A stretch of DNA of 64,000 nucleotides from Talinum fruticosum (lineage: Eukaryota; Streptophyta; Magnoliopsida; Caryophyllales; Talinaceae): contig JAITYX010000046.1 in the NCBI GenBank assembly GCA_021018815.1, positions 1,330,001 through 1,394,000 of the forward strand. The letters run 5' to 3'. Shown one piece after another: positions 1-64,000 of this stretch (positions are counted from its first letter, which is position 1; every line of letters begins with the position of its first letter). The notes below the pieces were generated by a model, which was not told where the DNA came from, searched no databases, and saw only the letters and a program-made list of their open reading frames with translations. The position numbers were made by a program, and so were the translations under genes.

Positions 1-1222
1 TTATTTGATCTAGTACTTCCTAACCGAGGTAACCTTTATAGCTAGGGACAAGCGAGTTGAGTTAACCCTTACAGCTCGAGTCAAGGGACCTTACTCAGAA
101 AGTAAGAATGAAAGTTGTGACTGATTACAACACTTTACAACTCGGAAAGATGTTAAATACGAGTTGGAGTTGTAAGTAGAAGATTGAATATGAATACAAA
201 GACTTTCGCTTAAGTATGTGTATTGACAATGGTTCTAGCAATCTTCAAGTCTTGAGGGTTGGCTTTTATTTATAGTTGACCAGGCGGTTTAGCCGTTGTG
301 ACTATCTTCGATTAGAAGTCCTCTGTGACCATTGTAACGGTTCTTCTAAGTCACTCAACAAAGATCCGTTGAGTTGTGAACGTTGTGTAATGGCTCTTGA
401 CTCCTTAGGATGTCCCAATCCACTGGTGGTGTCTCGAAAAGTAAGGTGGAAACCACCGTTGAGCTTAGCGTTGAAGATTTCTAGTTTTGAAAACGAGACA
501 ACCACGACACGGTTTCGAGCCTTGGTCGAAGTAGAAAAAGCCTTGTCTGCTGGTGATTTGACATCTTGAAGCCGGTTACTTTTGTAGTTCAAAAGTAGAA
601 TAACCTCGTTTAAACAAACCATAAAAGTAAATTAATTTTGGTTCTCAAAGTATAAAATACTTTGGTCCAAGATTAGACACATATAATAATTTAATTAAGA
701 TAATTAAGCGCGTAATTATCCGAGTCGAGAAAGGAATGGAATTTTTACGAGTCTATCATTATACTCAAATTCCATCTAAGTCATGTCCGGAGAAAGATCA
801 AGTTAGATAAATAATATCGAGTAAGAATACTTGATCTAGATAGATAAAGTTCAAACAAAACAAGGCGACTAGACGAGATGAACTAATGTCTGTAATTCAC
901 TTGAACTTGGAATATTAAGTCGGACCTTTGTTTAAGCGTGTTGGAGAGAGTGTTTGAACATGCGATAAATCCGAGTATTGTCCGAGTGACTCGGAACTAC
1001 AAATGTGAAATGATGAGCAAGAGTATGCTTTACGAGTCGAGTCAAAATGAAATGAAAACAAATGCAATAGTTTACGTAACACTCGAGAGAAGGTTTTGTA
1101 TCACTCATAAAACTTTCTATATCACATAGAATGACTTGTAATCAAAACTTATAAGAGATAAAGTTTGTACCTGATTCCTTAATAGTACTCGGAATGTTAT
1201 ATATGCTAAGTCCGAGTCTTCA
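1..1222 (-). repeat. Partial 3' LTR of element A
   Basis: Base 1 corresponds to about 7258 in the complete 5' LTR of the same element, so roughly 296 bp are cut off. The inner border is the terminal CTTCA at 1218-1222, directly followed by a polypurine tract read on the minus strand. A TATA-like box read on minus (264-275, complement of TTTTATTTATAG) precedes the likely transcript start. ORFs seen across 276-622 are LTR sequence in chance frames. Confidence 0.85.
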
Positions 1223-1626
1223 ACTCCCCTTTTTGATGAAAGGCATTCTTTACTCGGATAGAAACTTTGTTAGTGTTAAAGCCACGAGTTTTCATTCTTT
1301 CTTAACGAACATGTCGGAGAAACTAAAATTTAGTTTGCATCGAGCTAAAAGCTGAAATATCTCATAGAAATGAAGTGAATCAAACTTAGAGTATTGCTTA
1401 TATCGAGCACAAAAGAAATGTAAGCGAGTTGATAGATTAGAGTAAGAAAGAATAATAAGTTATTGAGTTGATATAATGGGGAAAGATGAACTCAAAAAAA
1501 TAAATTGAAACTTAGAAATCACTTCATTAATATTCACATAGAAAGATATATACACAAAAGAGGTGAGAGAAAATCTCCCCTAAACAAGACAACACAAATT
1601 TTCTAACTATTCTCCCCTTGCCTTTC
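1223..1626 (-). promoter_or_regulatory. Polypurine tracts and 3' noncoding region of element A
   Basis: Three purine tracts are read on the minus strand: one directly next to the 3' LTR (1223-1237, AAAAAGGGGAG core), one at 1574-1587 (TTTAGGGGAG core) and one at 1610-1626 (AAGGCAAGGGGAG core) that overlaps the ORF3 stop. The tract next to the LTR is the normal plus-strand primer site. Multiple tracts are a known Sirevirus trait. Between them nothing else is recognisable. Confidence 0.75.
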
Positions 1627-6947: not shown

Positions 6948-6960
6948 GGTTTGATACGAA
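6948..6960 (-). promoter_or_regulatory. Primer binding site of element A
   Basis: Read on minus, TTCGTATCAAACC is a mutated form of TGGTATCAGAGCC, the site complementary to the 3' end of initiator tRNA-Met. It lies directly inside the 5' LTR. Confidence 0.7.
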
Positions 6961-6961
6961 T

Positions 6962-8483
6962 TGAAGGTTTGCTCTTGGAGAGAATTAGTCACCTTAAAGG
7001 GGGTGAATAGGGTGATGAGGAAATTTGAACAATAAATGGAAGATTAAAGTTTAAAACAAACTTTAAGGCTTTCCGAGTAGAGATTGAACTCAGAATTTAC
7101 TTGGAAACCCTCTTGGGGCAGAAAACCACGGCCAGTGCTAATCCAAGCACCAAGTCAAATCCACTATTTTGAATCCACAGAATACACTAGACAAACTCAA
7201 CCAGAATTGCTCCCTTAGACAATTCCTAACAAGGGTTGCCTAGACTCGAAGTTCCCTTATCTAGTTTAGTACTTCCTAACTTCGGTAACCTTTACGAGTT
7301 AGGGACAAGCGAGCTGAGTTAACCTTTACAGACTAAGTCAAGGGACCTTACTCAGAAAGTAAGAATGAAAGTTATGACTGATTACAACACTTTACAACTC
7401 GGAAAGATGTTAAATATAGAGTTGGAGTTGTAAGTAGAAGATTGAATATGAATACAAAGACTTTCGCTTAAGTATGTGTATTGACAATGGTTCCAGCAAT
7501 CTTCAAGTCTTGAGAGTTGGCTTCTATTTATAGATGACCAGGCGGTTTAGCCGTTGTGACTATCTTCTTATTAGAAGTCCTCTATGACCATTGTAACGGT
7601 TCTTTTGAGTCACTCGAAAAGATCCGTTGAGTTGTGAACGTTGTGCAATGACTCTTGACTCCTTAGGATGTCCCAATCCACTAGTGGTGTCCGAAAAGTA
7701 AGGTGGAAACCATCGTTGAGCTTAGCGTTGAAGATTTTCAGTTTTGGAAACAAACAACCCTCACACGGTTTCTATGCCTTGGTTAGAAGTAGAAAAAACC
7801 TTGTCTCGCTGGTGATTTGACATCTTAAAACCGGTTACTTTTGTATTTCAAAAGTAGGATAACCTCGTTTAAATAACCTACAAAAGTAAATTAATTTTGG
7901 TTCTCAAAGTATAAAATACTTTGGTCCAAGATTAGACACAAATAATAATTTAATTAAGATAATTAAGCGCATAATTATCCGAGTCGAGAAAGGAATGGAA
8001 TTTTTCGAGTCTAATATTCATTATACTCAAATTCTATCTAAGTCTATCTGGAGAAAGATCAAGTTAGATAAAGAATATCGGAGTAAGAATACTTGATCTA
8101 GACAGATAAAGTTCAAACAAAACAAGCTGACTAGACGAGATGAACTAATGCTGTAATTCACCGAACTTCGAATATGAAGTCGGACACTGTGTTTAAGCGT
8201 GTTGGAGCGAGTATTTGAACATGCGATAAATCTAAGTGTTGTCCGAGTGACTCAGAACTACAAATGTGAAAAGATGAGCAAGAGTATGCTTTACGAGTCG
8301 GTCGGAATGAAATGAAAACAAATGCAATAGTTTACGTAATACTCGAGAGAAGGTTTTGTATCACTCATAAAAGTTTCTATATCACTTAGAATGACTTGTA
8401 ATCAAAACATATAAGAGATGAAGTTTGTACCTGATTCCTTGATAGTACTCGAGAATGTTATATATGCAAAGTCCGAGTCTTCA
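6962..8483 (-). repeat. 5' LTR of element A (1522 bp)
   Basis: Plus-strand borders are TGAAGGTTTGCTC at 6962 and GTCCGAGTCTTCA ending at 8483, so the LTR has TGAAG...CTTCA ends on the coding strand. A TATA box is at 7523-7533 (CTATAAATAG on minus). Upstream of it on the coding strand lie AACGG cores such as those at 7551, 7593 and 7623. It pairs with 1-1222 with many differences, so A is older than D. Confidence 0.85.
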
Positions 8484-9640: not shown

Positions 9641-10621
9641 ACAATGAGAGAGGCATAGAGGCGGAGGGAAGCAAAGGAATTAAACTACGAACTCGAGACA
9701 GTGAAGATTGGAATCTCCGTCGACGTTGAAAAGTCGCCAACTTCCACCATCATTTGTGAGAGTGGGTTAGCTAACTAAGTGCGATTGAGGGTGTAGATGT
9801 CGTAAGAGAGAGTGCGACTGGGGGTGGGATGTTGGCTGCTTGTTGGGAGGTAGATTGGGAAGGCAAGGGGAGAGGAGGAACAGCGAGTAATAGATAAATG
9901 AGGGGGAGAGACAAAATATTAGCATTACTTAAGGGTTTTTAATCAATCGTGCCTCATATTAAATCGAATCTAAAACTATATAGGTCTCATATCATAAATT
10001 AAAAATTAAAAATGTTAGAAATATTATAAATTAGTTCATGTTTCGGATTTAAAATTTAATTTTTAGAACCAAAATCGAAACTCGTTCAACGAGGTTCCTA
10101 AATTTTAGAAACCTTATTCGGAACCGTTTGATTGATTTTGATTTCAAAACCTTATTGTTTGATTTACTCCAGAATACTCATTAGCGAGTACTCGGCTTTA
10201 AAAATAGAACTTATTTTTTGCGCGTAATTTAAATTTGGTTTTAGATTATTCATGTGTAATAGTTAATTTGAAGTTAAACTAACTCTATTTTATTTATTTA
10301 TTTATTTTAATAGGTAGTTCAATCAGGAATCTCATTTCTCATAACTTTTTCATACTTAACTAAAATTATGAAACTTAATTCATTGGAAAGTAGACTTATT
10401 AAGTCTTTAGAAGAATCAAGAATAGCATCAATGTGAGAGCAAATGAGAAAGTTACGACTCAAATAAGTTTGCCACGAAATCCGGGCAAACTCCACGACCC
10501 ATGTCAAGGACTAGAAATCCAGTTGAGCAATAGAGAGCCACCACATTCATACCCATGGTCGTGAGGAAGATGGTGGCAACAGCCATGAGTTAAGCCACTA
10601 GCCATGTTAGGTTGGTTTTGC
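9641..10621. other. Unassigned sequence between the Tork-like LTR and element B
   Basis: No coding region or repeat pair was recognised. 9640-9900 is purine-rich; 9930-10310 is AT-rich with short words such as GGTTCC and GGAACC; 10316-10560 resembles retroelement noncoding sequence but has no partner in the window. No target duplication for element B was found here. Confidence 0.4.
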
Positions 10622-12081
10622 TCTAAATCTAAATCATTCGAGTACTACATTCGAGATATAAACCTCATCTCTTTTAAGTTTTGATTACAAGTTATTACGG
10701 GTGATATAGAAACTCCTGTATAAGTTTTTATTTGTTTCTCACTGACTTAGAAAACACATTCTCATATATCTTTTGCATTAGTGTTTCGACTCACTCGAGA
10801 CGAGCACTCGGATCTATAGCATGTTCAAATAATTTCTCTAACACTTTTATTCAAAGTTCGACTTTACATTTCAATGCAAAGTGAATTACAACATTAATTC
10901 TTCTTTCTAAGTCGGTTTGTTTGTTTGAGAAATATTTGTCCAAATTAAGTCTTTATACTCTAATGTTTTTACTCTTTCTAACTTGATCTTTCTTAGGATC
11001 GACTCTTATGGAATTTGAGTATATTGAATATTAGACTCGAGAAAATTCCACTCTTCTAGGCCTAAGATAATTATGCACTTAATTTTCTTAATTAAATTAT
11101 TATCCGTGCCTAATCTTGGACCAAGGTATTTTATACTTTGAGAACTAAAGTGGTTTACTTTTGTAGGTTATCCAAACGAGGCTATCTATTTTTTGAATTA
11201 CAAAAGTAGCTGGGATCAAGTCGTCAATCACCAGCAGACAAGGCTTATCTACTTTTAAATAAGGCTCGGACACCGTGTCGGGATTGTCTGTTTCCAAAAT
11301 TGGAAAACTTCAACGCTAAGCTCAACGGTGGTTTCCACCTTGCTTTTCGGACATCATTAGTTGGCTGGAGCACCTTTAGGAGCCAAGAGCCATTGCACAA
11401 CGTTCACATATCAACGGATCTTTTCTAAGCGGCGAGAGGGGTCATTACAACGACCGATAAAGACTTCGTTCAGAACCAAGACACAACGGTCACTTTGCTT
11501 GGTCATAAATAGAAGCCACTTCACAAGATTAGAAGATTGCTTAACACATTTGCTTGAAACTATATCTCTTAGTACAATACTCATTCAATCTTTTTCTTAC
11601 AATGCCAAGTTTGTACTAAATACTTTTCGAGTTGTAAAGTCTTGTAATCGAGTCACATACTTTTCTTACTTTCGAGTAAGGTCCCTTGACTAAGTCTGTA
11701 AGGGTTATCTCAGCTCGGTTGTCCCTAGCTGTAAAGATTACCTTAGTTAGGAAGTACTAGATCGAGATAAGGGAACTTCGAGTCTAGGAAAACTTTGTAA
11801 GGAATTGTCTAAGGGAGCAATTCTAGTTGAGTCAATCCGTTGTATTTTAAGGAGTCAAAATAGTGTATTTGACTTGGTGGTTGGACTAGCACTGTCCGTG
11901 GTTTCCTACCCCAGGAGAGTTTCCACGTATTTACGAGTGTATACTTTTCTCGGTCGAATCTACACTCGGATTCTGCTGTTTATCCTTTTCAAGCTTAAAT
12001 TCTCTAAGTTTGTTAAAATGTCCTCATCACCCTATTCACTCCCATCTAGGGTGACTTAAATTCTCCAAGAGCAAACTTTGA
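10622..12081 (+). repeat. 5' LTR of element B, first bases lost
   Basis: It aligns from CTCTAAATCTAAATC with base 13 or so of the 3' LTR (21377). A TATA-like CATAAATAGA lies at 11505-11514, AACGG cores lie upstream, and the end is CAAACTTTGA beside the PBS. Three ORFs read through it (for example 11361-11693, 11805-12059) only by chance. Confidence 0.85.
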
Positions 12082-17152: not shown

Positions 17153-17227
17153 TTATGTGATTTTCTAAGTGAAATTGTCTTGCATGATTATGTGTTATAG
17201 GTTTTCTTTCTTTTCCTTAATAATAAT

Positions 17228-43923: not shown

Positions 43924-46900
43924 TTATGCATTTAACATGCCAAGCTCATTCCGCCTAAAACAAAACTGATCTTCACCAAGAGGTTTAGTAAAGATATCGG
44001 CTAGTTGAAGATTAGTAGGAATGAACTCAAGCTCAATATCACCTTTCTCGGAATGGTCTCTTAAGAAATGATAGCCGACCTCAATATGTTTTGTCTTTGA
44101 GTGCTGAACTGGATTTTTGTGATGCTGATTGCACTTTGATTATCGCACTTGATTGGAACAGATTTGAAAGATAGTCCCGGATCTCTCAAGTGTTGCTTGA
44201 TCTATAAAATCCGAGCACGAGCATGCTCCAGCTGCAATATACTCGCTTCGGCGAGTTGATAGAGCCACTGAATTTTGCTTCTTTCAGTGCCAAGATATTA
44301 GGGATTGACCCGAAATTGGCAAGCTCCTGAAGTGCTTTTTCTATCAACTTTGTATCCAGCGGAATCCACATCCGAGTATCCAATGAGAGTCGGCTCCGAG
44401 TCTCTTGAGTACCATAGACCTAATTTCGAGTTCCTGCAAGATATATGAATATTCTCTTCACCGCAGTGAGATGTGATTCTTTTGGATTAGCTTGGAATCT
44501 TGCGCATAAACAAACACCGAACATTATATCCGGTCGGCTGGAAGTAAGATATAGCAATGATCCAATCATACCTCGATAGAGTTTCGATATTGCTTTACCT
44601 TTCTCGTCCGAGTCAAGTTTTATACTCGTTGCTCATGGGTGTAGATGCATGCTTTGCATCTTGAAGTTGGTATTTCTTCAGCATAGATTTCATCTTTGTC
44701 TTGTTTGATTTGTAGACCAAGGAAGAAATTGAGTTCTCCCATCATGCTCATTTGAAATTCCCGACTCATTAACTCGGAAAATTCTCGGCACGGAAATTCA
44801 TTAGTAGCTCCAAAAATAATATCATCAACATAGATTTGAACAATAAGGAAATCTTTCCCCTTGGTTTTTAGAAAGAGAGTCTTGTCGATCCGACCTCTTC
44901 TAAAATCATTTTGAACCAAGAAATTGCTCGAGTCTTTCATACCAAACTTGGAGAGCTTGTTTAAGACCATAAAGAGCTTTTTGGAGTTTGAAAACATAAT
45001 CTGGAAACTCTGAGTTTTCAAAACCAGGAGGTTGCTCGACATAGACTTCCTCTTCAATAAAACCATTGAGAAAGGCACACTTAACATCCATTTGATATAA
45101 TTTGATATTCATGCTAGATGCAAATGTTAACAATATTCTAATAGCTTCAATTCAGCTACAGGTGCAAAGGTTTCCCCACAATCAATCCCTTCTTCTTGAT
45201 TGTATCCTTGAGCCACAAGTCTAGCCTTGTTTCGACTACCACCCCACCTTCATCCAGCTTGTTCTTGAAAACCCATTTGGTTCCTATGACTGGGTGGTCG
45301 GAAGGTCGTTTGGTCGAGTCCGGACTTGGTTTCTTTCGAATTGATTGAGTTCCTCTTGCATGGCCTCTACCCATTCAGGTTCATTTAGGGCCTCTAGTGC
45401 ATTTCGGGTTCGAGTTAATGAAATGAATGCGGTGAATGCACATAGATTTTGAAGAGAGGAACGAGTTCTTACCCCACTTGTTGATACCGAGATAGTTTGT
45501 TTTCTAGTGGATGACTAGAAGTGAACTTGAATGCTCTATCTGTTCTCCGATTCAAAAGATTTGTGGGCTGAGCTACCTGATCTTCGAAGCTTGTTCGAGT
45601 GATCTTCTTCATTAGCTTGTTCGTTACGAGCGAGGCTCTTGAATTGTCTCATTCCGAGTCACTTCGTTATGAGTGACTTCATTCCGAGCTGGTTGAGCTT
45701 GAGTCTTATGTTCATCATTATCATCTTCTCTATTGAGCTTCAAGTCCGAGTATGAAGACTCACTTGGTTTCTCCTATTTCATCTCGATCAAACACAACGT
45801 GGATGCTTTCTTCCACTTTGTTAATTCTCTTGTTAAAAATGCGATAAGCTTTGCTCTGAGATGAATAACCCGGAAAAATACCTTCATCTGACCGAGCATC
45901 AAACTTGGTCGAGTGATCCTTACCATTGTTGTGAACGAAACACTTACATCCAAATGGTCCGAAATAGGAAATATTTGGTTTCTTCCCTTTGTAGAGCTCA
46001 TAAGGTGTTTTCTTCAGAATGGGTCCGATGAGGCATCTACTTAGAGTGTAGTTGGTTGTGTTGACTACCTCAGCCCATAAATAATAAGGTAAGTTGTGCT
46101 CAATCATCATTGTCCTTGCTATTTCTTCAAGAGTTCGGTTCTTTCTCTCTACTACTCCATTTTGTTGAGGAGTTCGGGAGCTGAAAAGTTGTGAGAGACT
46201 CCATTCTTATCGCAAAACTCCGAGAATTCCGAGTAATCAAACTCTCTTCCATGGTCGGTTTTGATTCTCTAAATGCGAGTCTGCGACTCAACTTAGATTT
46301 TTCTGCGAGCTTGCTTGAACTCTTTGAATGCTTCATTTTTGTGCTTAAGAAAACACACCCAGGTAAATCGTGAATAATCATCAATAATAACAAATATATA
46401 TAATTTACCTCCGAGACTCTTAAGCGGGATTTGACCACATAAATCCATATGTAGCAGCTCAAGCACTTTGGATGTGGAAACTGTCTTCGAGAGATTTGAA
46501 TGAACATTTGACTTGTTTCCTTCTTGTGCATGCTTCACAAACTTTATCTTTTTCAAAAGCATAGTTAGGTAAACCTCTAACCAAACCATGAGATGCCAAT
46601 TTCTTGATAGTATGCATGCTAATATGGCCTAGTCTACGATGCCATGTCCATAAGTCATCATGAAGAGATGCTTTTAAGCAAGATAAATTCTGACTCGGGT
46701 CGAAAGAGGAATAATATAAGTGTTACCTGATCTTTTAACCGATAGTTTGATCTCCTTGGTGGTAACATTAGAAATGTAACAGTTGGTCTAAGTGAATCTT
46801 ACCTCTTGACCTTTATCGCACAGTTGAGAGATGCTAAGCGGATTGTACTTTAATCCTTTGACAAGGTAAACTGGGCTGACCAGATTGCATCCTTTTCCAA

Positions 46901-48881
46901 TCTTGCCTATCCCAACTATCTTGCCTTTGCTTGTCATCCCCAAAAGTGACCTTTCTTCCTTTATGTTTTTCTAACTCGGAAAAGAGTCCTGAGTCTCCGA
47001 CATGTGACACGAACATCCACTATCAAGGTATCAATGTCCTTTTGATCTCTTACGAGTGACCTGCAAAACAGAGACAATCTAACCCTTCTCACTCCTTCTA
47101 ACGAACCTAGTAACACTCTTTCTTGTGGTCCTTTTCGAGGAAGAAGGTTTTCGGAACCCAGATTTGAATGACTTTGGGTTTAGTCCGATGCTAAGTCTTT
47201 TCTTTAAAGAAGCGAGTCTATGTCTCTTTCTTTTTGAAAACTTTTCCTTTGGAGACTGGAGAATATGGTTTCTTCTTGTAAGCTGCTCTGGGCTTAGTCC
47301 TCTCTTCATTTTTATGAACGGGACCATGCTCAGCTTTCTGAACTTTACGGTTCGGAATCCTTTTGAAGAGCTCCGAGTAGGAATTGGATTCCTCCTCTTT
47401 GTTGAAACCAAGACCTTCTTTTACGAAGGAGACACATTGAGATCCTAAGAGCATGTCAAGGTTTTTCGACCTTGAGTGAATTTTAAAACAAGATCTTGAG
47501 ACTCGGTAAGCTTTTGCTTTAGCTGCTCATTTTCTTTTCTGAGTAACTCGGACTCAGTCTCATTGGATTGAACACTAGTCTTGAGTTCTCTCGAGTGTAA
47601 GTCTCGGTTTTCCAATTCATTCTTCAAAGATATGCTCTCGGAGGAAATTGACTCTAGTTGTTCTGTGAAATGAGAAGAGTCGAATTGGACTTTTCTTCCA
47701 AAGTAAAAATATACTTAGCCAAATCAACTTTGGAGAATTTGAGGAAATATTCAATTACCTCTTGAGGATTAGAATCCTCATTGTCGATTCCGAGTCGACT
47801 CTCTTTCAGCTTACGAGTCGGAGATTGCCATCGGACATTTTGAGTCGTCCGAGTCCTCGTCATCTTCCGACGAGTTCTCATCGCTCCATGTTGCCATCAT
47901 AGCCTTTTTCTTCTTTCTGTCCCCTTTTCTCTTTGAACAGTCTTTGACTATGTGGTCTTTGCTGCCACACTCAAAACATCCGAGAATTCTTGGTTAAAGA
48001 TAACTTTGAAGGAGAAGAATACTTACCTTTCTGTCCTTCTTATCTTTCTTATAGAATTCTTCTTTTGGCCTTTTATACCATCTTTTGTGCTTCATTATTC
48101 TCTTAAAACCTCTTGCAATAAGTGCCATGGGATCCTCTTCGAGTTAGAGGAACTCAGATTTGCTTCTCGGGTTTCTAAGGCTTTCGGTGCTATGTTCTTT
48201 TTGGTGCTTGCCGTCGGCATCCTCCTCTTCCGAGTGGATTTCATGAGTGAGAAGCTTCCCAATGAGCTCGTCCGGCTTTAGAAGTGATAGGTTACTGAGC
48301 CTCCTCTATGGCGATCACCTTGGGACCCCATCTTCTCTTAGGTAGGCTTTTGAGTATCTTTCTGCACATTTCCTCGTGGGTAATCTTCCTACCCGGAGAT
48401 TTGAGATTGTTGGTAATCTCGGTAAATCGAATAAACATTTGAGTGATGTTCTCTTCGGCTCCATCTTAAATAGCTCATATTTATGAGGATATTGACTGAT
48501 CTTCGCTTGTCCGACCTGGCTTGTGCCTTCATAAGTTTTGACCAGTGTGTCCCACACTTCTTTGGCTGAATCACGGGTAGATACTCGATTGTATTCTTCT
48601 AGGCTGATGGTGCACATCGGAATGTTCATTGCCTTGAAGTTCTTTTTGAACTTCTCCGCTTCACCGGAGTAAACTCGGCCTTAGTCTTGGAAATGATTCT
48701 AAATTCTTCTGTCTTCATGGGAATGTAGTTTCCTTGTTGTATGATGTCCCAAACATCTTCATCATGATCCAGGAGGAAACATTCCATGAGTTTCTTCCGA
48801 GTGCACGAAATTTGATCCTTTGAATTTTGGTGGTCTGCTGGAAGATCTTCCTTCATCGAACTCTCCGTTGTTACGAGCCAT
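43924..48881 (-). pseudogene. gag-pol of element D (full length, interrupted)
   Basis: ATG at 48881-48879 reads MARNNGEFDEG. Gag knuckle CFECGSKDHIVKDC is intact at 47978-47937, followed by a coiled-coil tail (47627-47445, 'LLRKENEQLKQKL'). Protease DSG is at 47024-47016. Integrase catalytic Asp codons are at 46445-46443 and 46256-46254, and an in-frame TAA follows ARRKI; the C-terminal half (46110-45760) is open with MMIEHNLPYYLWAE. RT has '[20 protein letters not shown]' (45133-44906) and YVDD at 44832-44821. A 29-bp deletion near 44682 then shifts the frame before RNase H. Stop TAA at 43926-43924. 4958 bp against 5012 in B. Confidence 0.88.
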
Positions 48882-48926: not shown

Positions 48927-48939
48927 GGCTCTAACACCA
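48927..48939 (-). promoter_or_regulatory. Primer binding site of element D
   Basis: TGGTGTTAGAGCC on minus, two transitions from TGGTATCAGAGCC, two bases inside the 5' LTR. Confidence 0.8.
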
Positions 48940-48941
48940 AT

Positions 48942-50545
48942 TGAAGGTTTGCTCGGGGAGAGTCCGAGTCACCCTAGAAGGGGGTTAATAGGGTTATGGA
49001 GGATTTTCGTGAACATTGAGCTCTTTTTGCCAAAGTAGAGACAAAAGCAGATTACGAGTCTAAACAAGGTCCGAAAAGTATAAACTCATAATCTCGGTAA
49101 AAAGTAAGGAAGTAGATTCAAGCTGCGACTCGGTATGTCCGAGTCTAGAATGACCTCGAAAGTAAATACACGAGATATTACGTGGAAACCCTCCTGGGGC
49201 AGAAAACCACGGACCGTGGTAATCCAAGCACGAAGTCAAATCCACTATTTTGAGTCCACAAAGTACCGTGGACTGGTCGAACCCGAGTTGCTCCATTCGA
49301 CAACTCTTTACAAGCTTTTCCTAGACTCGAAGTTCCCTTATCCGATCTAGTACTTCCTAGCTGAGATAAACCTTACAGCTAGGGACAACTAGGCTGAGTT
49401 ACCCTTTACGGCTCGGTCAAGGGACCTTACTTAGAAAGTAAGAAGAAAGTGATTGTAACGAAGTACAAGACCTTACAACTCGAGAATATAATGAATTAGA
49501 GAGTGGGAGTTGTAAGTAGAAGATTGAAAGTGAATACAATGACTTTTACTCAAGTATGTATTAACAATAGATTCGGCAATCTTCAAGTCTTGTGAGTTGG
49601 CTTCCTTTTATAGATGACCGAGCGAGTAGCCGTTATCTCCATCTTCGACTGGAAGTCCTTTGTGACCATTGTTAACGACTTTACGAGTCACTTAGAAAGT
49701 ATCCGTTGAAATATAAACGTTGGACAACGGTTCTTAATTTCTTTTGAAGTCCTAAAACCACCTGGCGTTGTCTTAAAAGATAAGGTGAAAACCACCGTTA
49801 AGCTTGGCATTTCGGTTTTCAGATTTGGAAACAGACAGCCACGACACAATCTTCGGGGCTAGGTTAGAGAAGGGGAAAAGTCATGTCTACTGGTGATTTG
49901 ACGTCTTTGAAGCGAGTTACTTTTGTATTTCAAAAGTGTATCTTCGTTTGAATAACCTACAAAAGTAAATCAAATTGGTTCTCAAAGTATAAAATACTTT
50001 AGTCCAAGATTAGACACGAGATAATAATATAATTAAGATAATTGATCGACTAATTATCCGAGTCGAGAAAAGGAATGGGATTTTACGAGTCTAATATCCA
50101 TGAAACTCAAAATTTCATCCGAGTTAGTCTAAACGAGAATCAAGTTATACAACGAATATCGAGTGAAACAAACTTGATCTAGCCTAAGGATGGTTCGGAC
50201 TAGAAGCGCCGACTACAACAGAATAGGACTTATAACATGAAGTCGGACCTGAGTGCGGTTAAGCGAAATACTAGTCACTTCAACATGCGATAAATCTAAG
50301 TGATGAGGGACTCATAAGCTGAGTGAGACAGCGTGAGTGCATATCTGTTTTCCGAGTCACTTAGAGACAAGCAAGAAATATATGAAGTCAATGTCATATC
50401 ACTTAGAGAAAATACTATATCACTTAGAAAAGTTTCTAAGGTACGAGAGAATGCCTTGGAATCAAAACTCTATAAGTGAGAAATTCTTATACTCGATTCC
50501 TTTGTTAGAACTCGGAATTGTGCTTGAGTAAAGTCCGAGTCTTCA
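48942..50545 (-). repeat. 5' LTR of element D (1604 bp)
   Basis: Starts TGAAGGTTTGCTCGGGG at 48942 and ends GTCCGAGTCTTCA at 50545. TATA-like box on minus at 49604-49613. Same length as 39623-41226; the visible differences include CCGAGCGAGTAG here against CCAGGCAGAGTAG there. Confidence 0.92.
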
Positions 50546-53510
50546 AAAATCTTTCCCCTTGGTTTTTATAAAGAAAGTCTTGTCAATCGACCTCTTCTAA
50601 AATCATTTTAAACCAAAAAATTGCTCAATCTTTCATACCAAGTTCGTGGTGCTTGTTTAAGACCATAAAGAGCTTTTGAAGCTTGAAAACATGATTTGGA
50701 AAATCTGAGTTTTCAAATCCGAGGGCTAATCAACATAGACTTCCTCTTCGATAAAACCATTGAGAAAAGCACACTTAACATCCATTTGATATAACTTAAC
50801 ATTCATGCTAGATGCAAATGACAACGATATTCTAATGGCTTCAATTCAGCTATGGGTGCAAAGGTTTCCCCACAATCAATCCCTTCTTCCTGATTATAAC
50901 CTTGAGCCACAAGTCTAGCCTTGTTTCGACTACCAATCCACCTTCATCTAGTTTGTTCTTGAAAACGCACTTAGTTCCTATGACTGGATGGTCGGAAGGT
51001 CGTTTGGTCGGAGTCCGGACTTGGTTTCTTTCGAATTGATTGAGTTCCTCTTGCATTGCCTCTACCCATTCAGGTTCATTTAGTGCTTTTAGTGCATTTT
51101 TAGGTTCGATTAATGAAATGAATGCGGTGAATGCATATAAATTCTGAAGAGAGGAACAAGTTCTTACACACTATTGATATCGGATAATATGTTTTCTAGT
51201 GGATGACTAGAAGCATACTTGAATGCTTTACTGTTCTCCGATTCACCGGATCTGTAGGCTGAAATGCTTGATCTTAAGAAGCTTCTTCCGAGTGATCCTG
51301 TTCATCAGATTGTCCTTCATCATTCTTAGTGGGTTCTTGAGTTGTCTCATTCTAAGTCACTTCGTTACGAGTGTCTTCATTCTAAGTCTGGTTGCGTTTG
51401 ATTCCTAATAGGCTCACTTTCATCACGATTATCATTTCTGCAGAGCTTTAGGTCCGAGAATGTTGAGTCACTTGATTTTTCCTGTTCAAGTTCATCAAAT
51501 ACAACGTGGATGCTTTCTTCCACTTTGTTAGTTCTCTTATTAAAAATGCGATAAGCTTTACTATGAGATGAATAATCCGAGAAAAATACCTTCATCCGAC
51601 CGAGCATCAAACTTGGTCGGGTGATCCTTACCATTGTTGTGAACAAAACACTTACATCCGAAGGGTTTAAAGTATTAAATATTGGGTTTCTTCCCTTTGT
51701 AGAGCTAGTACGGTGTTTTCTTCAGAATGGGTCCGATGAGGCATCTATTGAAGGTGTAGTTGGTTGTGTTGACCGCCTCGGCCCGAAATAGTAGGGTAGA
51801 TTGTGTTCAATCATCATTGTCCTAGCTATTTCTTCAAGAGTTCTGTTCTTTCTCTCCACTACTCCATTTTGTTGAGGAGTTCTTGATGCTTGAGAAGTTG
51901 TGGGAGATGCCATTCTTGTCACAAAACTGTGCAAATTTCTAAGTAGTCGAACTCCCTACCATGGTCGGTTCAAATTCTTTGAATCCGAGTCCGAGACTCA
52001 ACTTGGATTTTCTGCAGAGCTTGCTTGAACTCTTTGGATGCTTCATTTTTGTGCTTAAGAAAACACACCCAGGTAAATCGTGAGTAATCATCAACAATAA
52101 CAAGTACATATGATTTACCTCCAAGACTCTTAACGGGGATTTCACCACATAGATCCATATGTAGTATTTCGAGCACTTTGGATGTGGAAACTGTCTTTAG
52201 AGATTTGAAAGTTGATTTGACTCGTTTTCCTTTTGTGCAAGCTTCACGAGATCTTATCTTTTTGAAAGCACAATTAGGCAATCCTCTAACTAACCCATGA
52301 GATGCCGGTTTCTTAATAGTATGCATGCTAACATGACCTAATCTGCGATGCCATGTCCATGAGTCATCAAGAAGTGATGCTTTTAAACAAGATAGATTCG
52401 ACTCGGGTCGAAATAGGAATAATATAAGTGTTACCCGATCTCTTACCTGAAAGCCTAATCTCCTTGGTAGTGTCATCGGAAATGTAACAGTTGGTTTGAG
52501 TGAATCTTACCTCTTGACCTTTATCACACTATTGAGAAATGCTAAGCGGGTTGTACTTTAATCCTTTGACAAGATATACTTGGGCTGACTAGATTTCCTC
52601 CCTTTCCAACCTTGCATATCCCAATTATCTTGCCTTTTCTGTCATCTCCAAATGTGACTTTTCCTCCTTTGTACTCTTCTAACTCAAAAAAGAGTCTTGA
52701 GTCTCCCGACATGTGGCGTGAACATCCACTGTCCAGGTACCAATGCCCTTTTGATCTTTTACGAGTGGCCTGCAAAGCATAAACAAACTAATCCTTCTTA
52801 CTTCCTCTAACGAACCCAGGTAACACCTTTTACTGAGGTCCTTTTACGAGGAAGAACGTTTTTGAACCCGATTTGAATGACTTTGGATCCGGTCCGATTC
52901 CGAGTCTTCTGTTTAGAGAACCGAGTCTGTGTCTCTTTCTTTTGACAAACTTTTCTTTTATAAGTCGGTGGAGATGGTTTTCTCCTATAAGTTGGTCCAG
53001 GCTCAATCCTCCTTTTATTTTTATGAATGAGATCGTGCTCAGCCTTCTTGAACTTTACTGTTACGGAATCCTTTTTGAAAAGCTCTAAGTAGGAATTGGA
53101 TTCCTCCTCTTTGTTAAAACCAAGATCTTCTTTTCGAAGGAGACACATTGAGATCCCAAGAGCATATCAAGGTTCTTTTGACCTTGAGTAAACTTTAAAA
53201 CAAGATCTTAAGACTCGTTGAGCTTTTGCTTTAGTTGCTCATTTTCTTTTACGAGTAACTCGGACTCAATCTCATTGGATTGAGCACTAGTCTTGAGTTC
53301 TCCGAGTGTAAGCCTCAGCTTTTCCAATTCATTTTTCAATGATATGCTCTCATAAGAAATTGACTCAAGTTGTTCTTTGAATCGAGAGGAGTCGAATTGG
53401 ACTTTTCTTCCAAAGTAAAAATGTATTTAGCTAGATCAACTTTGGAGAATTTGAGGAAGTATTCAATTACCTCTTGAGGATTAGTTTCCTCATTGTCCGA
53501 GTCCGAGTCA
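50546..53510 (-). pseudogene. Gag tail, protease, integrase and RT N-terminus of element C
   Basis: Read from 53510 leftwards: Gag coiled-coil tail, then basic Gag-PR linker (53148-52807). Protease is open for 77 codons with WYLDSGCSRHMSGDSRLF (DSG at 52733-52725). Integrase is open for 168 codons (52476-51970) with WHRRLGH, NCAFKK and HMDLCGEIPVKSLGG, then PQQNGVVERKNRTLEEIA with the catalytic Glu kept (51934-51722). RT N-terminus follows with [19 protein letters not shown] (51056-50850). Continuity with 39622 after removing D shows one gene. The Gag N-terminus is missing. Confidence 0.87.
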
Positions 53511-54730: not shown

Positions 54731-57078
54731 ATGGATAGGGTCGGATTCTGGAACATATGTGGCCTTAATGGCCTAAATAAGCAAGCAACAGTTAGAAGGT
54801 TCTTGCAAAACAATAAATGCCCCTTAATAGGGATTGTAGAAACCAAGACCAGTTGCAATAATGAAGAAGAAATTAGGCGAAATATCAACCCCACTAGAGA
54901 ATGATATCTAATGCTTCTTCAGTATCCAAAAGCATAATTTGGATCTTGTGGAATGATCGGATTATAGATATGGACATTATCATTGTGGACTCATAGTTCA
55001 TTCACTTAAGGAGCAAAAGCTGGAATGACAAAACAATATACAATATAGTGGTCTATTATTCTAATGATAGTACTAAGAGGAAGTTACTATGACGAACATG
55101 GTTCAAATCGGTGACGAGAATGGAGGAAACTTTGATAATTGGAGGGGACTTCAATAGCTTGCTTAGCCCCGAGGAGAGGCTAGGAGGGGATGAAATTCAT
55201 GGGGAGAACTAGTTGACTTTGCAGAATGCATCGAGTCATTGCTATCTCCAAGAGGCGAGACATGCGAGTCCAAAATACACCTAGAGTAACAAACAAGGAA
55301 GGACAAGGATATTCTCTAAACTAGACAGGGTTTTTAATCAATGGAGAAGGCATCACAAACTTCCCGAAATGGAGTACCAAATTCTTCCAAAGGAGATTTC
55401 GGATCATACTCCTCTCTTGGTGTAGATGAGAACAGGTAATAATAGAGTGATGTCCAGCTTTAAATTTTGTAATATGTAAGCAAAATGTAGTGAATTTGCC
55501 CATATTGTTAACAATTCCTGGTCACGGGAAGTGAGGGGTTTACCAATGTTTCATCTCATGATAAAACTAAAGAGCCTTAAACAGACCTCTAAAGCTTCGA
55601 ATAAAAGCAAATTCAATGGAATACAAGTTAGAGCTGCAGAAGCACTCGTCCAAATTGCACTTAATTCAACATGATATTCATAATAACCCTACGGACGGGG
55701 GCTGTATAAGAAGGAAGAAGTTGCTCTTACTGAATACAAGGCAATGGCAAAGGCTTAAAAGACTTTTTATGCCGGAAAAGCAAGGAAACTTGGTTGAGGA
55801 AGGGAGACTAGAATACCTCATACTTTTATGCTACCTTGGCACACAAAAAGTATAACATGGCAATAAAAAGAATGGAAATCAATAGGCAGTGATGAAATAT
55901 GAGCGAGGATGAAATAGGGAATTAACAATAGCATATTTTGCTGACTTCTTAGGCTGTGAGCCCCCAACAACAAAAACAGATCTATGAGGTCTTCATACAG
56001 GAGCATGTTCCGAGTCGGCACCAAAGGGAGGAGCTAATGGAACCTTGAGCTAATGCAGAAATCAAAGCTGCAATGTTCGAGTATAGGGGATGAAAAAAGC
56101 CCTAGACCAGATGGGTATGGAAGTTTTTTTCTTCAAAACCACATGGGAGATTACTAGTCCAAGTGTTTGCAAGGTTGTCGGAGATTTGTTTTGCAAGTGG
56201 AAAGTCTGTTTAAGCAAATGAATGCTACTACTCGGTAATGATCCCAAAGGTACGTAATACATCTAAACCTTGTGAACTTAGACCCATTGGCTCATGTAAT
56301 TCTATGTATAAATGCATTACTAAGTTGATTTGTTAAAGGCTCAAAAGAGTTATGTCTTGCTTAGTGGACCAATATCAAGGGGCTTTTATCTCAAGTAGAT
56401 CAATCCTGCATAATATCATGATTTGTGAGGATTTGATCAAATTGTACCATAGAAATAAGGTATCCCCAAGATGCATTATGAAAGCGGACTTGAAAAAGCC
56501 TATGACAGCTTAAATTGGGGATTCATCACTGAATTATTATATGGCTATGGTTTTCCGTACAACTAACTAGATGCATTGTGATGTACATATCTACAGACTA
56601 GTTTCTCGGTTAAAATCAATTGCCAAACATATGGATATTTGCAGAGCAAGAGAGGGTTGAGACAAGGAGACCCAATGTCCCCATTGATTTTTGTACCGGC
56701 AATGGAATATCTTAATAGAACCCTCAAGGTTTCCATAACACAATAGGGTTTTAAATTCCAACCAAGTTGCAAGCAACTGAATCTTTGCATGCTCAACTTT
56801 GCGAGATGACTCGCTTTTGTTTTGTAAAGCCCACAAATTTAGCATCCAATGTATTATGTGTGCCTTTCACCACTTTTTTATTGTTACGGGCGGGAAGCCA
56901 ATCCGGGTAAATCTCAAATTGTCTTTGCTGGGGTAAAGGAGGATATGGTGGAGAAACTACAACAAATTACAGGGTTCAATATGGATCTTTGCCTTTCAAG
57001 TACTTAGGAGTTTTTGTGAAACCACAAAAGCTTGGGACATTGGACTGTCAAATCCTTACAAAAAGGATAACGAAAGAA
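54731..57078 (+). pseudogene. LINE (L1-type) endonuclease-RT ORF, interrupted by element E
   Basis: ATG at 54731 opens MDRVGFWNICGLNGLNKQAT, then CPLIGIVETKT: the start of an APE-type endonuclease. GGDFNSLLSPEERLGGDE (GDFN at 55144-55155) and 'KLDRVFNQWRRH' follow in shifted frames. RT motifs: KALGPDGYG near 56095, ADLEKAYDSLNWGF near 56490-56525, [13 protein letters not shown] near 56650-56690 and the catalytic FADD at 56798-56810, where TTTGCGAGATGAC is read instead of TTTGCAGATGAC, one extra base. The ORF is broken many times and ends at 57078 where element E's LTR begins; the 3' part would lie beyond E. Confidence 0.85.
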
Positions 57079-58628
57079 TGAAGGTTTGCTCGGGGAGAGT
57101 CCGAGTCACCCTAGAGGGGGTGAATAGGGTGATGGAGGATTTTCGTAGAAATCCAAACTCTTTTACAAAAGTAGAGACAGAAACAGATTCCGAGTCAAAA
57201 GCTTGGTTAGAAAAGTACGGAATCGAAATGTCTGTAAAGAGTACGAAGCAAATTAAACTAATGCTTTGAGGTTGTCCGAGTCTAGAATGAACTCGGAAAG
57301 TGAGTACTCGGAGATTACGTGGAAACCCTCCTGGGCGAGAAAACCACGGACCGTGCTAATCCAAGCACGAAGTCAAATCCACTATTTTGAGTCCACAAAA
57401 TACCGTAGACTGACCGAACTCGAGTTGCTCCCTTAGACAACTCTTTACAAGTTTTCCTAGACTCAAAAATTCCCTTATCCGATCTAGTAGTTCCTAGTTG
57501 AGATAACCCTTACAGACTAGGGACAACTAAGCTGAGTTAACCTTTACTGACTTAGTCAAGGGACCTTACTCGGAAAGTAAGAAAGAGTTTGTAACTAAGT
57601 ACAAGACCTTACAACTCGAAAGTAATGAATTACAGAGTGGGAGTTGTAAGTGGAAGATTGAGAGTAAATACAATGCCTTTTCTCAAGTACGTGTATTAAC
57701 GATAGATTCGATAATCCTCAAGTCTTGTGAGTTGGCTTCTATTTAAAGATGACCAGGCGAGTAGTCGTTATCTCCATCTGCTGACCGAGAGTCCTTTGTG
57801 ACCGTTGATAAGGGCTTTACGAGACACTCGAGAGTATCCGTTGTGATATGAACGTTGGGGAACGGTTTAACTCTCTTGGAAGTCCCAAAACCACTCGGCG
57901 GTGTCTTGAAAGATAAGGTGGAAACCACCGTTAAGCTTGGCGTTTTAGTTTTCCAGATTTGGAAACAGACAGCCACGACACAATCTTACGGGACTCGGGA
58001 CGAGAGAAGAGGAAAAGCCATGTCTGCTTGGTGATTTGACGTTTTGAAGCCAGGTTACTTTTGTTATTTCGAGAAGTGTATCCTCGTTTGAATAACCTAC
58101 AAAAGTAAATCAAATTTTGGTTCTCAAAGTATAAAATACTTTGGTCCAAGATTAGACACGAGATAATAAAATAATTAAGATGATTAAGCAACTAATTATC
58201 CGAGTCGGAAAGAGAGTGGAATATTACGAGTCTAATATCCATGAAACTCAAAATTCCATCTAACTTAGTCTAAGTGAAGAGTCAAGTCACATAAAGAATA
58301 TCATAGTGAAATAACTTGATATAGACTAAGCTTGAATCGGACTAGAAGCCACGACTCCAACGAAATAGAACTTATAACATGAAGTCGGATCCGAATGAGA
58401 TGAAGCGAAATACTAGTCTATTCAGCATGCAATATATCTAAGTCACACAGAGACACGCAAGAATACGAGAAGTAAATTCTATATCACATAGAAAATATAC
58501 TATATCACTCGGAAAAGTCTCTAAAGTACGAGAGAATGCCTTGGAATCAAAACTCTATAAGTAAGAAATTCTTATACTCGATTCCTTCAATACAACTCGA
58601 AATGTGTTGAGCAATGTCCGAGTCTTCA
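57079..58628 (-). repeat. 3' LTR of element E (1550 bp)
   Basis: Starts TGAAGGTTTGCTCGGGG, ends GTCCGAGTCTTCA at 58628 beside the polypurine tract. Its TATA region on minus is weakened (CTTTAAATAGA, 57738-57748). Closest to the LTRs of D by shared wording, with small indels. Confidence 0.9.
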
Positions 58629-58915
58629 ATCTCCCCTTTTTGATGATAGGCATTCCATAATTAGGCAAGAACTTTGTTAGTGAAAAGATCCGATTTTGGA
58701 TACTTGCTCATGTAGTCGGATGAGTAAAGCAAGCTTAATGTATCGAGCAAAAGGAAAAAAATATGTTTAACAATGAAATAATGTTAACTCGAAATGGTTG
58801 CTTTGTGAACACAATTAATTCATTGAAATTAAAAATGAGTACACAGATTGATAAGGAAATCTCCCCTAAACAAGATAACAAATTTTTGTGACTCTATTTC
58901 TCCCCGTTGCCTTTC
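58629..58915 (-). promoter_or_regulatory. Polypurine tracts of element E
   Basis: AAAAAGGGGAGAT at 58629-58642, TTTAGGGGAGAT at 58860-58873 and AAGGCAACGGGGAG at 58899-58915, the last at the ORF3 stop. Confidence 0.7.
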
Positions 58916-60987: not shown

Positions 60988-61296
60988 AGATTCTAGCGAG
61001 TTTGAGATCCACGGCTAGCATCTGATCACAACGCCCAAGAGAGAGAGAGAAAAGATTTTGAAAATATATTACGAACTTCTCCACTGATCTAGAGATGAAT
61101 TCGGAAAATTTAAAGACCAAATTTTTCTCGACGTCCGAGTATGACTCATAATGGTTTCGAGTGACTTAGAAACTACAAAGAATTAATAACTACTAACCCG
61201 AGTGTCACTGGATCAAGCTGAGCTAATGGTTATAAAAAATTGAAAACACATAACACATAATAATGTAATGAGATTATCACAAAGATAGCTCACGAG

Positions 61297-64000
61297 TTAT
61301 GCATTTAACATACCAAGCTCATTCCTAATGAAACAAAACTGATCTTCACCAAGAGGCTTAGTAAAGATATCAGCTAATTGAAGATTAGTAGGAATGAATT
61401 CAAGTTCATTATCACCTTTCTCGGAATGGTCTCGTAAGAAATGATATCCGACCTCGATATGCTTTGTCTTTGAGTGCTTGAACTAGATTCTTTGTGATGC
61501 TTATTGCACTCGATTGTCACACTTGATTGGAACGGATTTGAAAGAAAGTCCAAGATCTCTCAAGTGTTGCTTTATCCATAGAATCCGAGTGCAACATGCT
61601 CTAGCTGCAATATACTCGGCTTCAACGGTTGATAAAGCTACTGAGTTACGCTTCTTTGAGTGCTAAGAGATTAGGGATTGACCCAGAAATTGACAAGCTC
61701 CGAAGTGCTCTTTCTATCAACTTTGCATCCAGCGTAGTCCGCGTCCGAGTATCCGGTGAGGGTCGGTTCCGAGTCTCTTGAGTACCAGAGACCTAAGTTA
61801 CGAGTTCCTGCAAGATATCCGAATATTCTCTTCACCGCAATGAGATGTGATTCTTTTGGATTAGCTTGAAATCTTGCACATAAACAAACACTCGAACATT
61901 ATATCTGGCCGGCTGGAAGTAAGATATAGCAATGATCCAATCATACTTCGATAGAGTTTCGATCTATAGCTTTACCTTTCTTGTCCGAGTCAAGCTTTAT
62001 ACTGCTTGCTCATGGGTGTAGATGCGTGCTTTGCATCTTGAAGTTTGTATTTCTTCAGCGGTTCCATGGTATACTTTGATTAATGGACATAGATTCCATC
62101 TTTGTCTTGTTTGATTTGTAAACCAAGGAAGAAATTGAGGTCTCCCATCATACTCATTTGAAATTCCCGACTCATCAACTCGAGAAAATTCTCGGCACGA
62201 GATATTCATTAGTTGCATCGAAGATAATATCATTAACATAGATTTGAACAATAAGGAAATCTTTCCCCTTGGTTTTTATAAAGAGAGTCTTGTCGATCCG
62301 ACCTCTTTTAAAGTCATTTTGAACCAGGAAACCGCTCGGTCTTTCATACCAAGCTCGAGGAGCTTGTTTAAGACCATAGAGAGCCTTTTGAAGTTTGAAA
62401 ACATAATCTAGAAATTCTAAGTTTTCAAAACCCGGAGGTCTGCTCGACATAGACTTTCTCTTTAATAAAACCATTGAGAAATGCACACTTAACATCCATT
62501 TGATATAATTTAATATGCATGCTTGGATGCAAATGCCAACAATATTCTAATAGCTTCGATTACGGCAACAGGTGCAAAGGTTTCCCCACAATCAATTCCT
62601 TCTTCTTGATTGTAACCTTGAGCCACAAGTCTAGCCTTATTTCGACTTTCACTCCACCCTCATCCGCTTTGTTTTTAAAACCCATTTGGTTCCTACAACT
62701 GGGTGGTCGGAAGGTCGGTTGGTCGAGTCCAAACTTGGTTTCTTTTGAATTGATTGAGTTCCTCTTGCATGGCCTTTACCCATTCAGGTTCATTAAGGGC
62801 CTCTAGTGCATTTTGGGTTCGGTTAATGAAATGAATGCAATGCATGCACATAGATTTTGAAGAGAGGAACGAGTTCTTACCCCACTTGTTGATATCGGAT
62901 ATTATGTTTTCTAGTGGGTGACTAGAAATAAACATGAATGCTTTACCAGTTCTACGATTCACAAGATTTGTGGGCTGAGCTACCTGATCTTCGAAGCTTG
63001 TTACGAGTGATCTTCTTCATTAGCTTGTTCATTACGAGCGAGCTCTTGAATTGTCTCATTCCGAGTCACTTCGTTACGAGTGACTTCATTTTGAGCCGAT
63101 TGAGTTTGAGTCTTTGTGGGCTCGGTTTCATCATCTTCTCTGCTGAGCTTCAATTCGAGTATGAAGACTCGCTTGGTTTCTCCTGTTCAAGCTCATCAAA
63201 CACAACGTGGATGCTCTCTTCCACTTTGTTAGTTTTCTTATTGAAGATGCGATAAGCTTTCTTTGTGAGAAGAATAACCCGGAAAAATACCTTCATCCGA
63301 CCGAGCATCAAACTTGGTTAGGTGATCGTTACCATTGTTGTGAACGAAACATTTACATCCAAATGGTCACGAAATAGGAAATATTTGGTTTCTTCCCTTT
63401 GTAGAGCTCATAAGGTGTTTTCTTCAATATGGGTCCGATGAGGCATCTATTCAAAGTATAGTTGGCTGTGTTGATCGCCTCGGCCCATAAATAGTAAGGC
63501 AAGTTGCGCTCAATCATCATAGTCCTTGCTATTTCTTCAAGAGTTCTGTTCTTTCTCTCCACTACTCCATTTTGTTGACGAGTTCTTGGTGCTGAGAAGT
63601 TGTGAGAGATGCCATTTTTGTCACAAAACTACGAGAATTCGAGTAGTCGAACTCCCTTCCATGGTCGGTTCGAATTCTCTAGATCCGAGTCTAAGACTCA
63701 ACTTGGATTTTTCTACGAGCTTGATGAACTCCTTGAATGCTTCATTTTTGTGCTTAAGAAAACACACCCGGGTAAATCGTGAATAATCATCAATAATAAC
63801 AAATATATATGATTTACCTCCAAGGCTCTTAATAGGGATTTCACCACATAAATCCATATGCAGTAGCTCAAGCACTTTGGATGTGGAAACTATCTTTAGA
63901 GATTTGAATGAAGATCTAACTTGTTTCCCTTTGGTGCATGCTTCACAAACTTTATCCTTCTCAAAAACACAGTTAGGTAAACCCCTAACCGGACTATGAG
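61297..64000 (-). pseudogene. pol of element E (integrase, RT, RNase H), 5' part outside
   Basis: From the right: zinc-region Cys pair (DKVCEACTKG-like) near 63945, HMDLCGEIPIKSLGGKSYIF (63875-63621), then MERKNRTLEEIARTMMIERN with the catalytic Glu kept (63562-63353). RT has ALYGLKQAPRAWYERP (62495-62175) and YVND instead of YVDD around 62245-62234, an Asp to Asn change at a metal-binding residue. RNase H runs to TAA at 61299-61297. Several shifts, e.g. before YVND. The Asp to Asn change alone would inactivate RT if real. Confidence 0.87.

What the first reader, a model, noticed from the sequence alone, without database searches (positions are those of the whole stretch)
1..64000. Small indels and swaps concentrated at CAG/CTG triplets across unrelated repeats
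Homologous sites read differently exactly where CAG or CTG is expected. LTR word TCTGCTGG (545) is TCTCGCTGG at 7804, 35369 and 40567, TCTACTGG at 49886 and TCTGCTTGG at 58023. Integrase word CCAGAAC is CCGGAAC in B (14860), and its complement TTCTGGGTGC is TTCGGGAGC in D, TTCTTGATGC in C and TTCTTGGTGC in E. CAGAG becomes CGAG in the PBS of B and of the unrelated F. The LINE FADD codons carry CAG to CGAG. Plant DNA methylates C in CHG, and CAG/CTG is a known weak context for long-read basecalling. Deamination would give only substitutions, not these length changes. Many 'frameshifts' here may therefore be artefacts.
Basis: partly seen in the sequence, partly recalled or inferred. Interest (0 to 1): 0.8.

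Follow-up and report, generated by a model that had tools for sequence, protein, structure and literature searches.

The report
Likely sequencing errors at methylated sites
In a stretch of plant DNA packed with old copies of one mobile element, the copies differ by many single missing or extra letters at the sites that plants usually methylate; the number of these does not grow with the age of the copies, so most of them are probably sequencing mistakes, and the broken genes seen here should not be trusted without other reads.

Summary
In three LTR pairs of one copia-type family, 67 of 70 indels are 1 bp. They concentrate at CGA/TCG (33 of 67, 6.0 expected); CAG/CTG is third of 32 triplets (17, 5.8 expected). 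Five gap scorings agree, and simulated decay does not reproduce the CGA excess. A few conversions recur: CGGA/CGAGA, TTCG/TTACG, CAG/CGAG.

The best clue is age. In five non-overlapping copy pairs, picked after seeing all 14 (which range 10.9-23.7 per kb), 1-bp indels stay at 15-17 per kb from 37 to 167 substitutions per kb; proportionality is rejected (p 4e-7), while transversions do follow age. Over the 14 pairs, 1-bp indels near CGA fall with divergence; the others rise, as true mutations would. So errors at CG-type sites, most simply nanopore misreading of 5-methylcytosine, are the best reading, over ordinary decay.

Limits: platform, species and methylation unknown; no reads; the genome search did not complete; a CG-coupling test showed no signal; two of three coding tests were not significant; many CAG substitutions are plain deamination.

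The parts
1..1222 (-). LTR of element A, cut by the window edge; mate of 7087-8483
   Evidence: self-BLAST 92.3% over 11-1222/7267-8483; 19 one-base and one 4-base indel; strand inferred from the flanking sequence
7087..8483 (-). second LTR of element A
10621..12075 (+). LTR of element B; TATCGAGC primer-site variant follows at 12087
   Evidence: 24 one-base of 26 indels against 21389-22847
21389..22847 (+). second LTR of element B
17226..18778 (+). single LTR (S) lying inside B
34548..36043 (-). LTR of element D
39620..41227 (-). LTR of element C, the youngest pair (96.3% identity)
   Evidence: 24 of 24 indels against 48939-50546 are 1 bp
48939..50546 (-). second LTR of element C
57079..58629 (-). 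LTR of element E; the element runs off the window
44849..47796 (-). C coding region compared with D 50547-53509
   Evidence: 48 one-base of 57 indels; 16.5 per kb at 12.2% divergence
50547..53509 (-). D coding region; gag_pre-integrs and rve domains in the reading frame 51970-52506
   Evidence: Pfam
44620..45108 (-). copia-type reverse transcriptase piece of C (RVT_2)
   Evidence: Pfam 2.9e-13
   Evidence: alignment of nine LTR copies
56798..56810 (+). LINE FADD codons with one extra base in a CAG
   Evidence: motif recalled
24241..24625 (-). LTR-like end of unrelated element F; mate at 31173-31559
   Evidence: 2 one-base gaps in 385 bp
31173..31559 (-). second LTR-like end of F; TATCGAGC at 31132 lies just inside

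Best explanation
The window is a nest of old copies of one copia-type LTR retrotransposon in an unidentified plant. Most single-base indels at CG-type sites between the copies are errors of the consensus sequence, not mutations. Shown: indels in the LTR pairs are almost all 1 bp, lie at CGA/CGAG and secondarily CAG/CTG, recur as a few fixed conversions, are scattered against the tree more than transversions, and near CGA do not rise with age. Inferred: the cytosines in these CG and CHG sites are methylated, native DNA was read by a nanopore whose model misreads 5-methylcytosine, and short-read polishing failed in the repeats. On top of this there is ordinary decay: CG and CAG/CTG transitions, longer indels, and some true 1-bp indels elsewhere.
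For: Size: 67 of 70 indels in the three LTR pairs are 1 bp. Context: CGA/TCG 5.5x and CAG/CTG 2.9x over random placement; 5.1-5.8x and 2.8-3.1x under five gap scorings over all 1-bp gaps, 5.2-5.7x and 3.0-3.2x when only isolated gaps are kept; 40 simulations with CpG/CHG-hot substitutions and uniform indels gave at most 9 CGA events (33 seen) and at most 13 CAG events (17 seen). Age: over 14 partly overlapping pairs the weighted slope of 1-bp indels on substitutions is -0.008, near CGA -0.043 with intercept 13.7 per kb. Five non-overlapping pairs, picked, have 24, 19, 24, 48 and 25 one-base indels: constant per kb X2 0.19, proportional to substitutions X2 35.3 (p 4e-7); transversions fit the clock (X2 2.4) and reject constancy (p 1e-13). 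Recurrence: CGGA/CGAGA 6 of 59 (0.18 expected), TTCG/TTACG 5 (0.13), CTGC/CTCGC 3 (0.05), ACAG/ACGAG 3 (0.12). Homoplasy: 8 of 25 one-step against 71 of 88 for transversions, p 9e-6. Private:shared 23:12 against 160:213 for substitutions, p 0.012. Literature: for then-current ONT basecallers with default models about 70% of consensus errors, about 0.4% error, lay in the 5mC motif CCAGG/CCTGG of Klebsiella (PMC6591954, passages), the same order as the roughly 0.8% per copy implied here if all 1-bp differences were errors.
Against: Platform, species and methylation state are unknown. There is no excess in homopolymers (3 of 59, about the 6.4% expected), although homopolymer errors are usual for nanopore data. 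22 of 59 isolated 1-bp indels lie in neither context, and 1-bp indels not near CGA rise with divergence (slope +0.035), so the flat total is partly a fall of one class against a rise of the other. The 14 pairs range from 10.9 to 23.7 per kb, and 300-bp blocks from 0 to 14. A test of whether length variation depends on a nearby CG in the same copy showed no pattern, though it was conditioned on variable columns and so weak. Frameshifts in the integrase region lie near CG or CAG/CTG in 9 of 12 cases with one reference protein (p 0.003) but only 5 of 10 and 5 of 9 with two others (p 0.17, 0.06). The unrelated F pair has only 2 gaps in 385 bp. One-base columns are not significantly more homoplasious than transitions (p 0.09), and columns of longer gaps are homoplasious too (15 of 27 one-step). 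Of 23 private changes 20 are insertions, a bias I do not explain.
Confidence: 0.78

Rival explanations
1. Real mutation: methylated CG and CHG sites in plant transposons are hotspots for true 1-bp indels, for example through faulty repair after a 5-methylcytosine glycosylase (DME/ROS1 type, recalled) or T:G repair cuts the strand.
For: The context fits methylation; the same conversions recur; no homopolymer excess.
Against: The near-CGA count does not grow with divergence and the total fits a constant in five pairs. It would need reversible hypermutation already saturated at 3.7% divergence, yet 80 of 119 CGA triplet comparisons in the C pair are unchanged. Several events change the base beside the CG, not the cytosine.
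Confidence: 0.08
2. Ordinary decay plus selective reading: deamination at CG and CHG makes these triplets look unstable, and the aligner or the reader places gaps there.
For: CAG is kept in only 38 of 94 triplet comparisons, and 25 of its 42 substitutions stand against CGG, TAG or CAA. CAG is at 0.38-0.51 of expectation in all seven regions tested. 1-bp indels away from CGA do rise with divergence.
Against: Simulated CpG/CHG-hot substitutions with uniform indels do not reproduce the CGA excess, and the excess stays when only isolated gaps are kept.
Confidence: 0.09
3. Errors of another platform or of repeat collapse, for example PacBio CLR or a chimeric consensus of several repeat copies.
For: It would also give 1-bp changes unrelated to age.
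Against: Collapse and CLR noise should not prefer CGA and CAG contexts (inference); the context preference is strong.
Confidence: 0.05

Closest known systems
Dcm-motif consensus errors of nanopore basecallers (Wick et al. 2019, PMC6591954; passages seen)
   Same: Errors cluster at a 5-methylcytosine motif (CCAGG/CCTGG, which contains CAG/CTG) and survive consensus; similar order of rate.
   Different: Bacterial motif; here the leading context is CGA/CGAG, and the errors are read from paralogues, not from a reference.
Plant-specific basecalling loss (PMC9749173 and the plant ONT review PMC7501810; passages seen)
   Same: Both hold that plant DNA modification lowers native-DNA basecalling; the review says unpolished long-read assemblies often hold many small indels.
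   Different: The passages seen give no motif table and no conversions such as CGGA to CGAGA.
Modification-mediated nanopore errors (Chiou et al. 2023, PMC10687267; passages seen)
   Same: Systematic, locus-bound errors not removed by read consensus, reduced by whole-genome amplification.
   Different: Listeria with other modifications; that removal test could not be run here.
CpG/CHG deamination of plant transposons (recalled)
   Same: Explains many CAG/CGG/TAG/CAA swaps and fits the low CAG frequency.
   Different: Gives substitutions only, not length changes.

Membership tests
Modification-mediated nanopore consensus error | Errors concentrated at motifs that can carry the modification | tested here: met
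   CGA/TCG 5.5x, CAG/CTG 2.9x; that these sites are methylated is inferred
Modification-mediated nanopore consensus error | Independent of evolutionary age of the copies | tested here: met
   near CGA slope -0.043 over 14 pairs; five pairs constant per kb X2 0.19, proportional rejected p 4e-7; 1-bp indels away from CGA do rise
Modification-mediated nanopore consensus error | Same local word misread in the same way repeatedly | tested here: met
   four conversions at about 25-60 times expectation, small counts of 3 to 6
Modification-mediated nanopore consensus error | Frameshifts in coding sequence at the same contexts | tested here: inconclusive
   9 of 12, 5 of 10, 5 of 9 by three reference proteins
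Modification-mediated nanopore consensus error | Length variant depends on an intact CG in the same copy | tested here: inconclusive
   no pattern in a test conditioned on variable columns
Modification-mediated nanopore consensus error | Accompanying homopolymer-length errors (usual, not obligatory) | tested here: not met
   3 of 59, about expectation
Modification-mediated nanopore consensus error | Data come from native DNA on a nanopore | not testable with these tools
   no metadata; the genome search unanswered 12 times
Modification-mediated nanopore consensus error | Vanishes in short reads, HiFi or amplified DNA | not testable with these tools
   no reads available
True indel hotspot at methylcytosine | Number of events grows with divergence unless saturated | tested here: not met
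Ty1/copia LTR retrotransposon | Copia-type RT (RVT_2), integrase with GAG-pre-integrase, paired LTRs | tested here: met
   Pfam, LTR pairs

The most novel reading that the evidence does not exclude
Methylated CG and CAG/CTG sites in plant transposons suffer a real, reversible and very fast 1-bp indel process with fixed products (CGGA to CGAGA, TTCG to TTACG, CAG to CGAG), saturated within the age of the youngest LTR pair; methylation would then break transposon reading frames directly as well as by deamination.
Probability: 0.06. Interest if true: 0.85.

Novelty: new member of a known kind. Interest (0 to 1): 0.3.

Why it matters
If this is error, frameshift-based statements about these elements (dead genes, lost primer sites, ages that count gaps) are unsafe, and LTR pairs offer a read-free way to gauge consensus error in a plant assembly: fit 1-bp indels per kb against substitutions, by context, and read the intercept. 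If it is not error, it would be a new mutational hotspot.

Tried and rejected
CAG/CTG as the primary motif: rejected, third and second of 32. The integrase example as stated: rejected. Alignment artefact from CpG decay as the source of the CGA excess: rejected by simulation. Homopolymer error: no excess. Coupling of length variants to an intact CG in the same copy: the test, conditioned on gapped columns, showed 55 of 140 pairs differing when both have CG, 98 of 313 when one has, 29 of 53 with CHG only, and 340 of 923 when neither has CG or CHG, so no signal; an impression of coupling from reading the LTR alignment is therefore not claimed. tblastn frame counts read B and C in one frame over about 600-820 bp with P0001, P0003 and P0011, where the frame-aware alignment found shifts with P0001 and P0003 (P0011 was not run there). 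Plant copia controls from other sources: viral contigs gave no relative, 13 pattern matches none confirmed; genome contigs gave one locus of 114 pattern matches, L001, recorded as Labilibacter, CAG 1.16 of expected, one unmatched sequence and not used as a control for rate. Species: of the 120 proteins listed out of 889, the first with any name is recorded as Acinetobacter (49% identical) and the first named as a plant is Dendrobium catenatum (59% over 65% of the query), too far to name the host.

Papers: six seen in passages; the rest seen only as listings. I saw no report of the CGGA/CGAGA type of conversion in plants in these; that is not a full literature search.

Changed on re-checking: the fall of near-CGA and rise of other 1-bp indels, the post-hoc choice of the five pairs and the longer-gap homoplasy are now told; confidence was lowered from 0.80 to 0.78 for this.
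Full report
WHAT THE WINDOW IS. Self-comparison shows one family of LTR elements in several copies: A (LTRs 1-1222 and 7087-8483), B (10621-12075 and 21389-22847), C (39620-41227 and 48939-50546), and single LTRs S (17226-18778), D (34548-36043) and E (57079-58629); C appears nested in D. Coding pieces match gag_pre-integrs, rve and RVT_2 (2 of 8 reading frames scanned gave matches), so this is a Ty1/copia-type element. The first database relative named as a plant is from the orchid Dendrobium catenatum, 59% identical over 65% of the query. The host is a plant that I could not identify.

CHECK OF THE EXAMPLES. The six LTR forms are present within 2 bp of the stated places. The integrase words CCAGAAC and TTCTGGGTGC are absent from the window; the homologous copies in E and B read CCAAGAAC and CCGGAAC, though C and D carry one-base length changes beside the site. 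The B and F primer sites read TATCGAGC. The LINE FADD site at 56798 carries an extra base in CAG (motif recalled).

IS IT MORE THAN CHANCE. I aligned the three LTR pairs and counted every gap. 67 of 70 are 1 bp: 24 of 24 in C, 19 of 20 in A, 24 of 26 in B. Against random placement of the same events, CGA/TCG is changed in 33 (6.0 expected), CTC/GAG in 25 (9.0), CAG/CTG in 17 (5.8); the four-letter leaders are CGAG/CTCG, 26 (4.1), and TCGA, 18 (2.6). In six further copy pairs with 259 events, which partly share sequence, the order is CGA/TCG 88 (23.9), CAG/CTG 61 (24.2), CCG/CGG 50 (17.8). Five gap scorings and restriction to isolated gaps change little, and simulated decay with uniform indels does not reproduce the CGA count.

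ERROR OR MUTATION. Three tests bear on this. First, age. Over 14 pairs, partly overlapping, 1-bp indels range from 10.9 to 23.7 per kb with no trend (slope -0.008). Split by context, those near CGA fall with divergence (intercept 13.7 per kb, slope -0.043) and the others rise (4.6 per kb, +0.035). That is what errors tied to CG sites that themselves decay, plus some true mutation elsewhere, would give. Five non-overlapping pairs chosen after that call (C LTR, A LTR, B LTR, C/D coding, B/E coding) have 15.0, 15.8, 16.7, 16.5 and 16.6 per kb at 37, 58, 99, 122 and 167 substitutions per kb. A constant fits with X2 0.19; proportionality to substitutions fails with X2 35.3. Transversions behave the opposite way; the 16 indels of 2 bp or more are better fitted by the clock (X2 2.3 against 6.7), but constancy is not rejected for them. 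The youngest pair has no indel above 1 bp. Second, distribution on the tree: one-base columns need more than one step in 17 of 25 informative cases against 17 of 88 for transversions (p 9e-6); the difference from transitions (85 of 177) is not significant (p 0.09), and longer-gap columns also need more than one step in 12 of 27. Private to shared changes are 23:12 against 160:213 for substitutions (p 0.012; columns without a 75% majority among the other copies were left out). Third, fixed conversions: CGAGA/CGGA 6, CGTAA/CGAA 5, CTCGC/CTGC 3 and ACGAG/ACAG 3 of 59, each expected at most 0.18 times (picked as the commonest seen); the first two are again the commonest in other pairs, 12 and 12 of 258.

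A CODING YARDSTICK. Aligning the integrase region of B, C, D and E to intact proteins with frameshifts allowed gives 12 shifts in 2882 bp (P0001), 10 in 2678 (P0007) and 9 in 2319 (P0003), while the one outside locus L001 has none. Shifts near CG or CAG/CTG are 9 of 12, 5 of 10 and 5 of 9, against backgrounds of about 0.26-0.32; only the first is significant. I expect that the method hides close compensating pairs and so undercounts. It supports many frame breaks but decides the context only weakly.

WHAT IS ORDINARY. CAG is unstable partly because it decays: of 42 substituted CAG, 25 stand against CGG, TAG or CAA, and CAG stands at 0.38-0.51 of expectation in all seven regions, also outside the copia copies. 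Deamination of methylated CHG and CG would give this. Whether misreading adds to the depletion cannot be told without reads.

HOW IT MOST LIKELY WORKS. Shown: context, size, lack of growth with age near CGA, recurrence. Inferred: a basecaller not trained on plant 5-methylcytosine misreads the signal around mCG and mCHG in a word-specific way, so that reads err alike and the consensus keeps the error; short-read polishing then fails in repeats. Published passages support links in other material: about 70% of consensus errors and about 0.4% error at Dcm sites with default models (PMC6591954); poorer calling of modified plant DNA (PMC9749173; PMC7501810); modification errors reduced by amplification (PMC10687267). 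A polished 12 Gb plant nanopore assembly reports about 7 errors per 10 kb (PMC10473749), well below the roughly 80 per 10 kb implied here if all 1-bp differences are errors, so this would have to be a poorly polished stretch.

WEAK POINTS. No reads, no platform, no species. No homopolymer excess. 22 of 59 isolated events fit neither context. Blocks of 300 bp range from 0 to 14 one-base indels. The F pair has 2 gaps in 385 bp, fewer than the roughly 6 that the family rate would give; two gaps are too few to settle it. The insertion bias (20 of 23 private changes) is unexplained. The CG-coupling test showed nothing. A saturated real hotspot cannot be excluded by sequence alone.

VERDICT. The concentration is confirmed and its motif corrected. 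The artefact reading, for the indels at CG-type sites, is the best one, at about 0.78. As biology it is ordinary; as a caution and as a read-free error gauge it is useful.

Noticed in passing
15035-15683: A 650 bp piece inside element B matches C 45356-45984 in the opposite sense to both of its flanks, an internal inversion not far from the single LTR at 17226-18778.
   Followed up: no
1-64000: CAG/CTG stands at 0.38-0.51 of its Markov expectation in all seven regions tested, also in DNA unrelated to the copia copies.
   Followed up: partly
24241-31559: An unrelated LTR-like element F with 385 bp ends, 15% diverged, carries only 2 one-base gaps between its ends, fewer per kb than the copia LTR pairs.
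   Followed up: partly
L001: A contig recorded as Labilibacter sediminis encodes a copia integrase relative with no frameshift found; possibly contaminating eukaryotic DNA.
   Followed up: no
6951-7087: The LTR of A at 7087-8483 seems to lack about 155 bp near its inner end compared with C and E.
   Followed up: no
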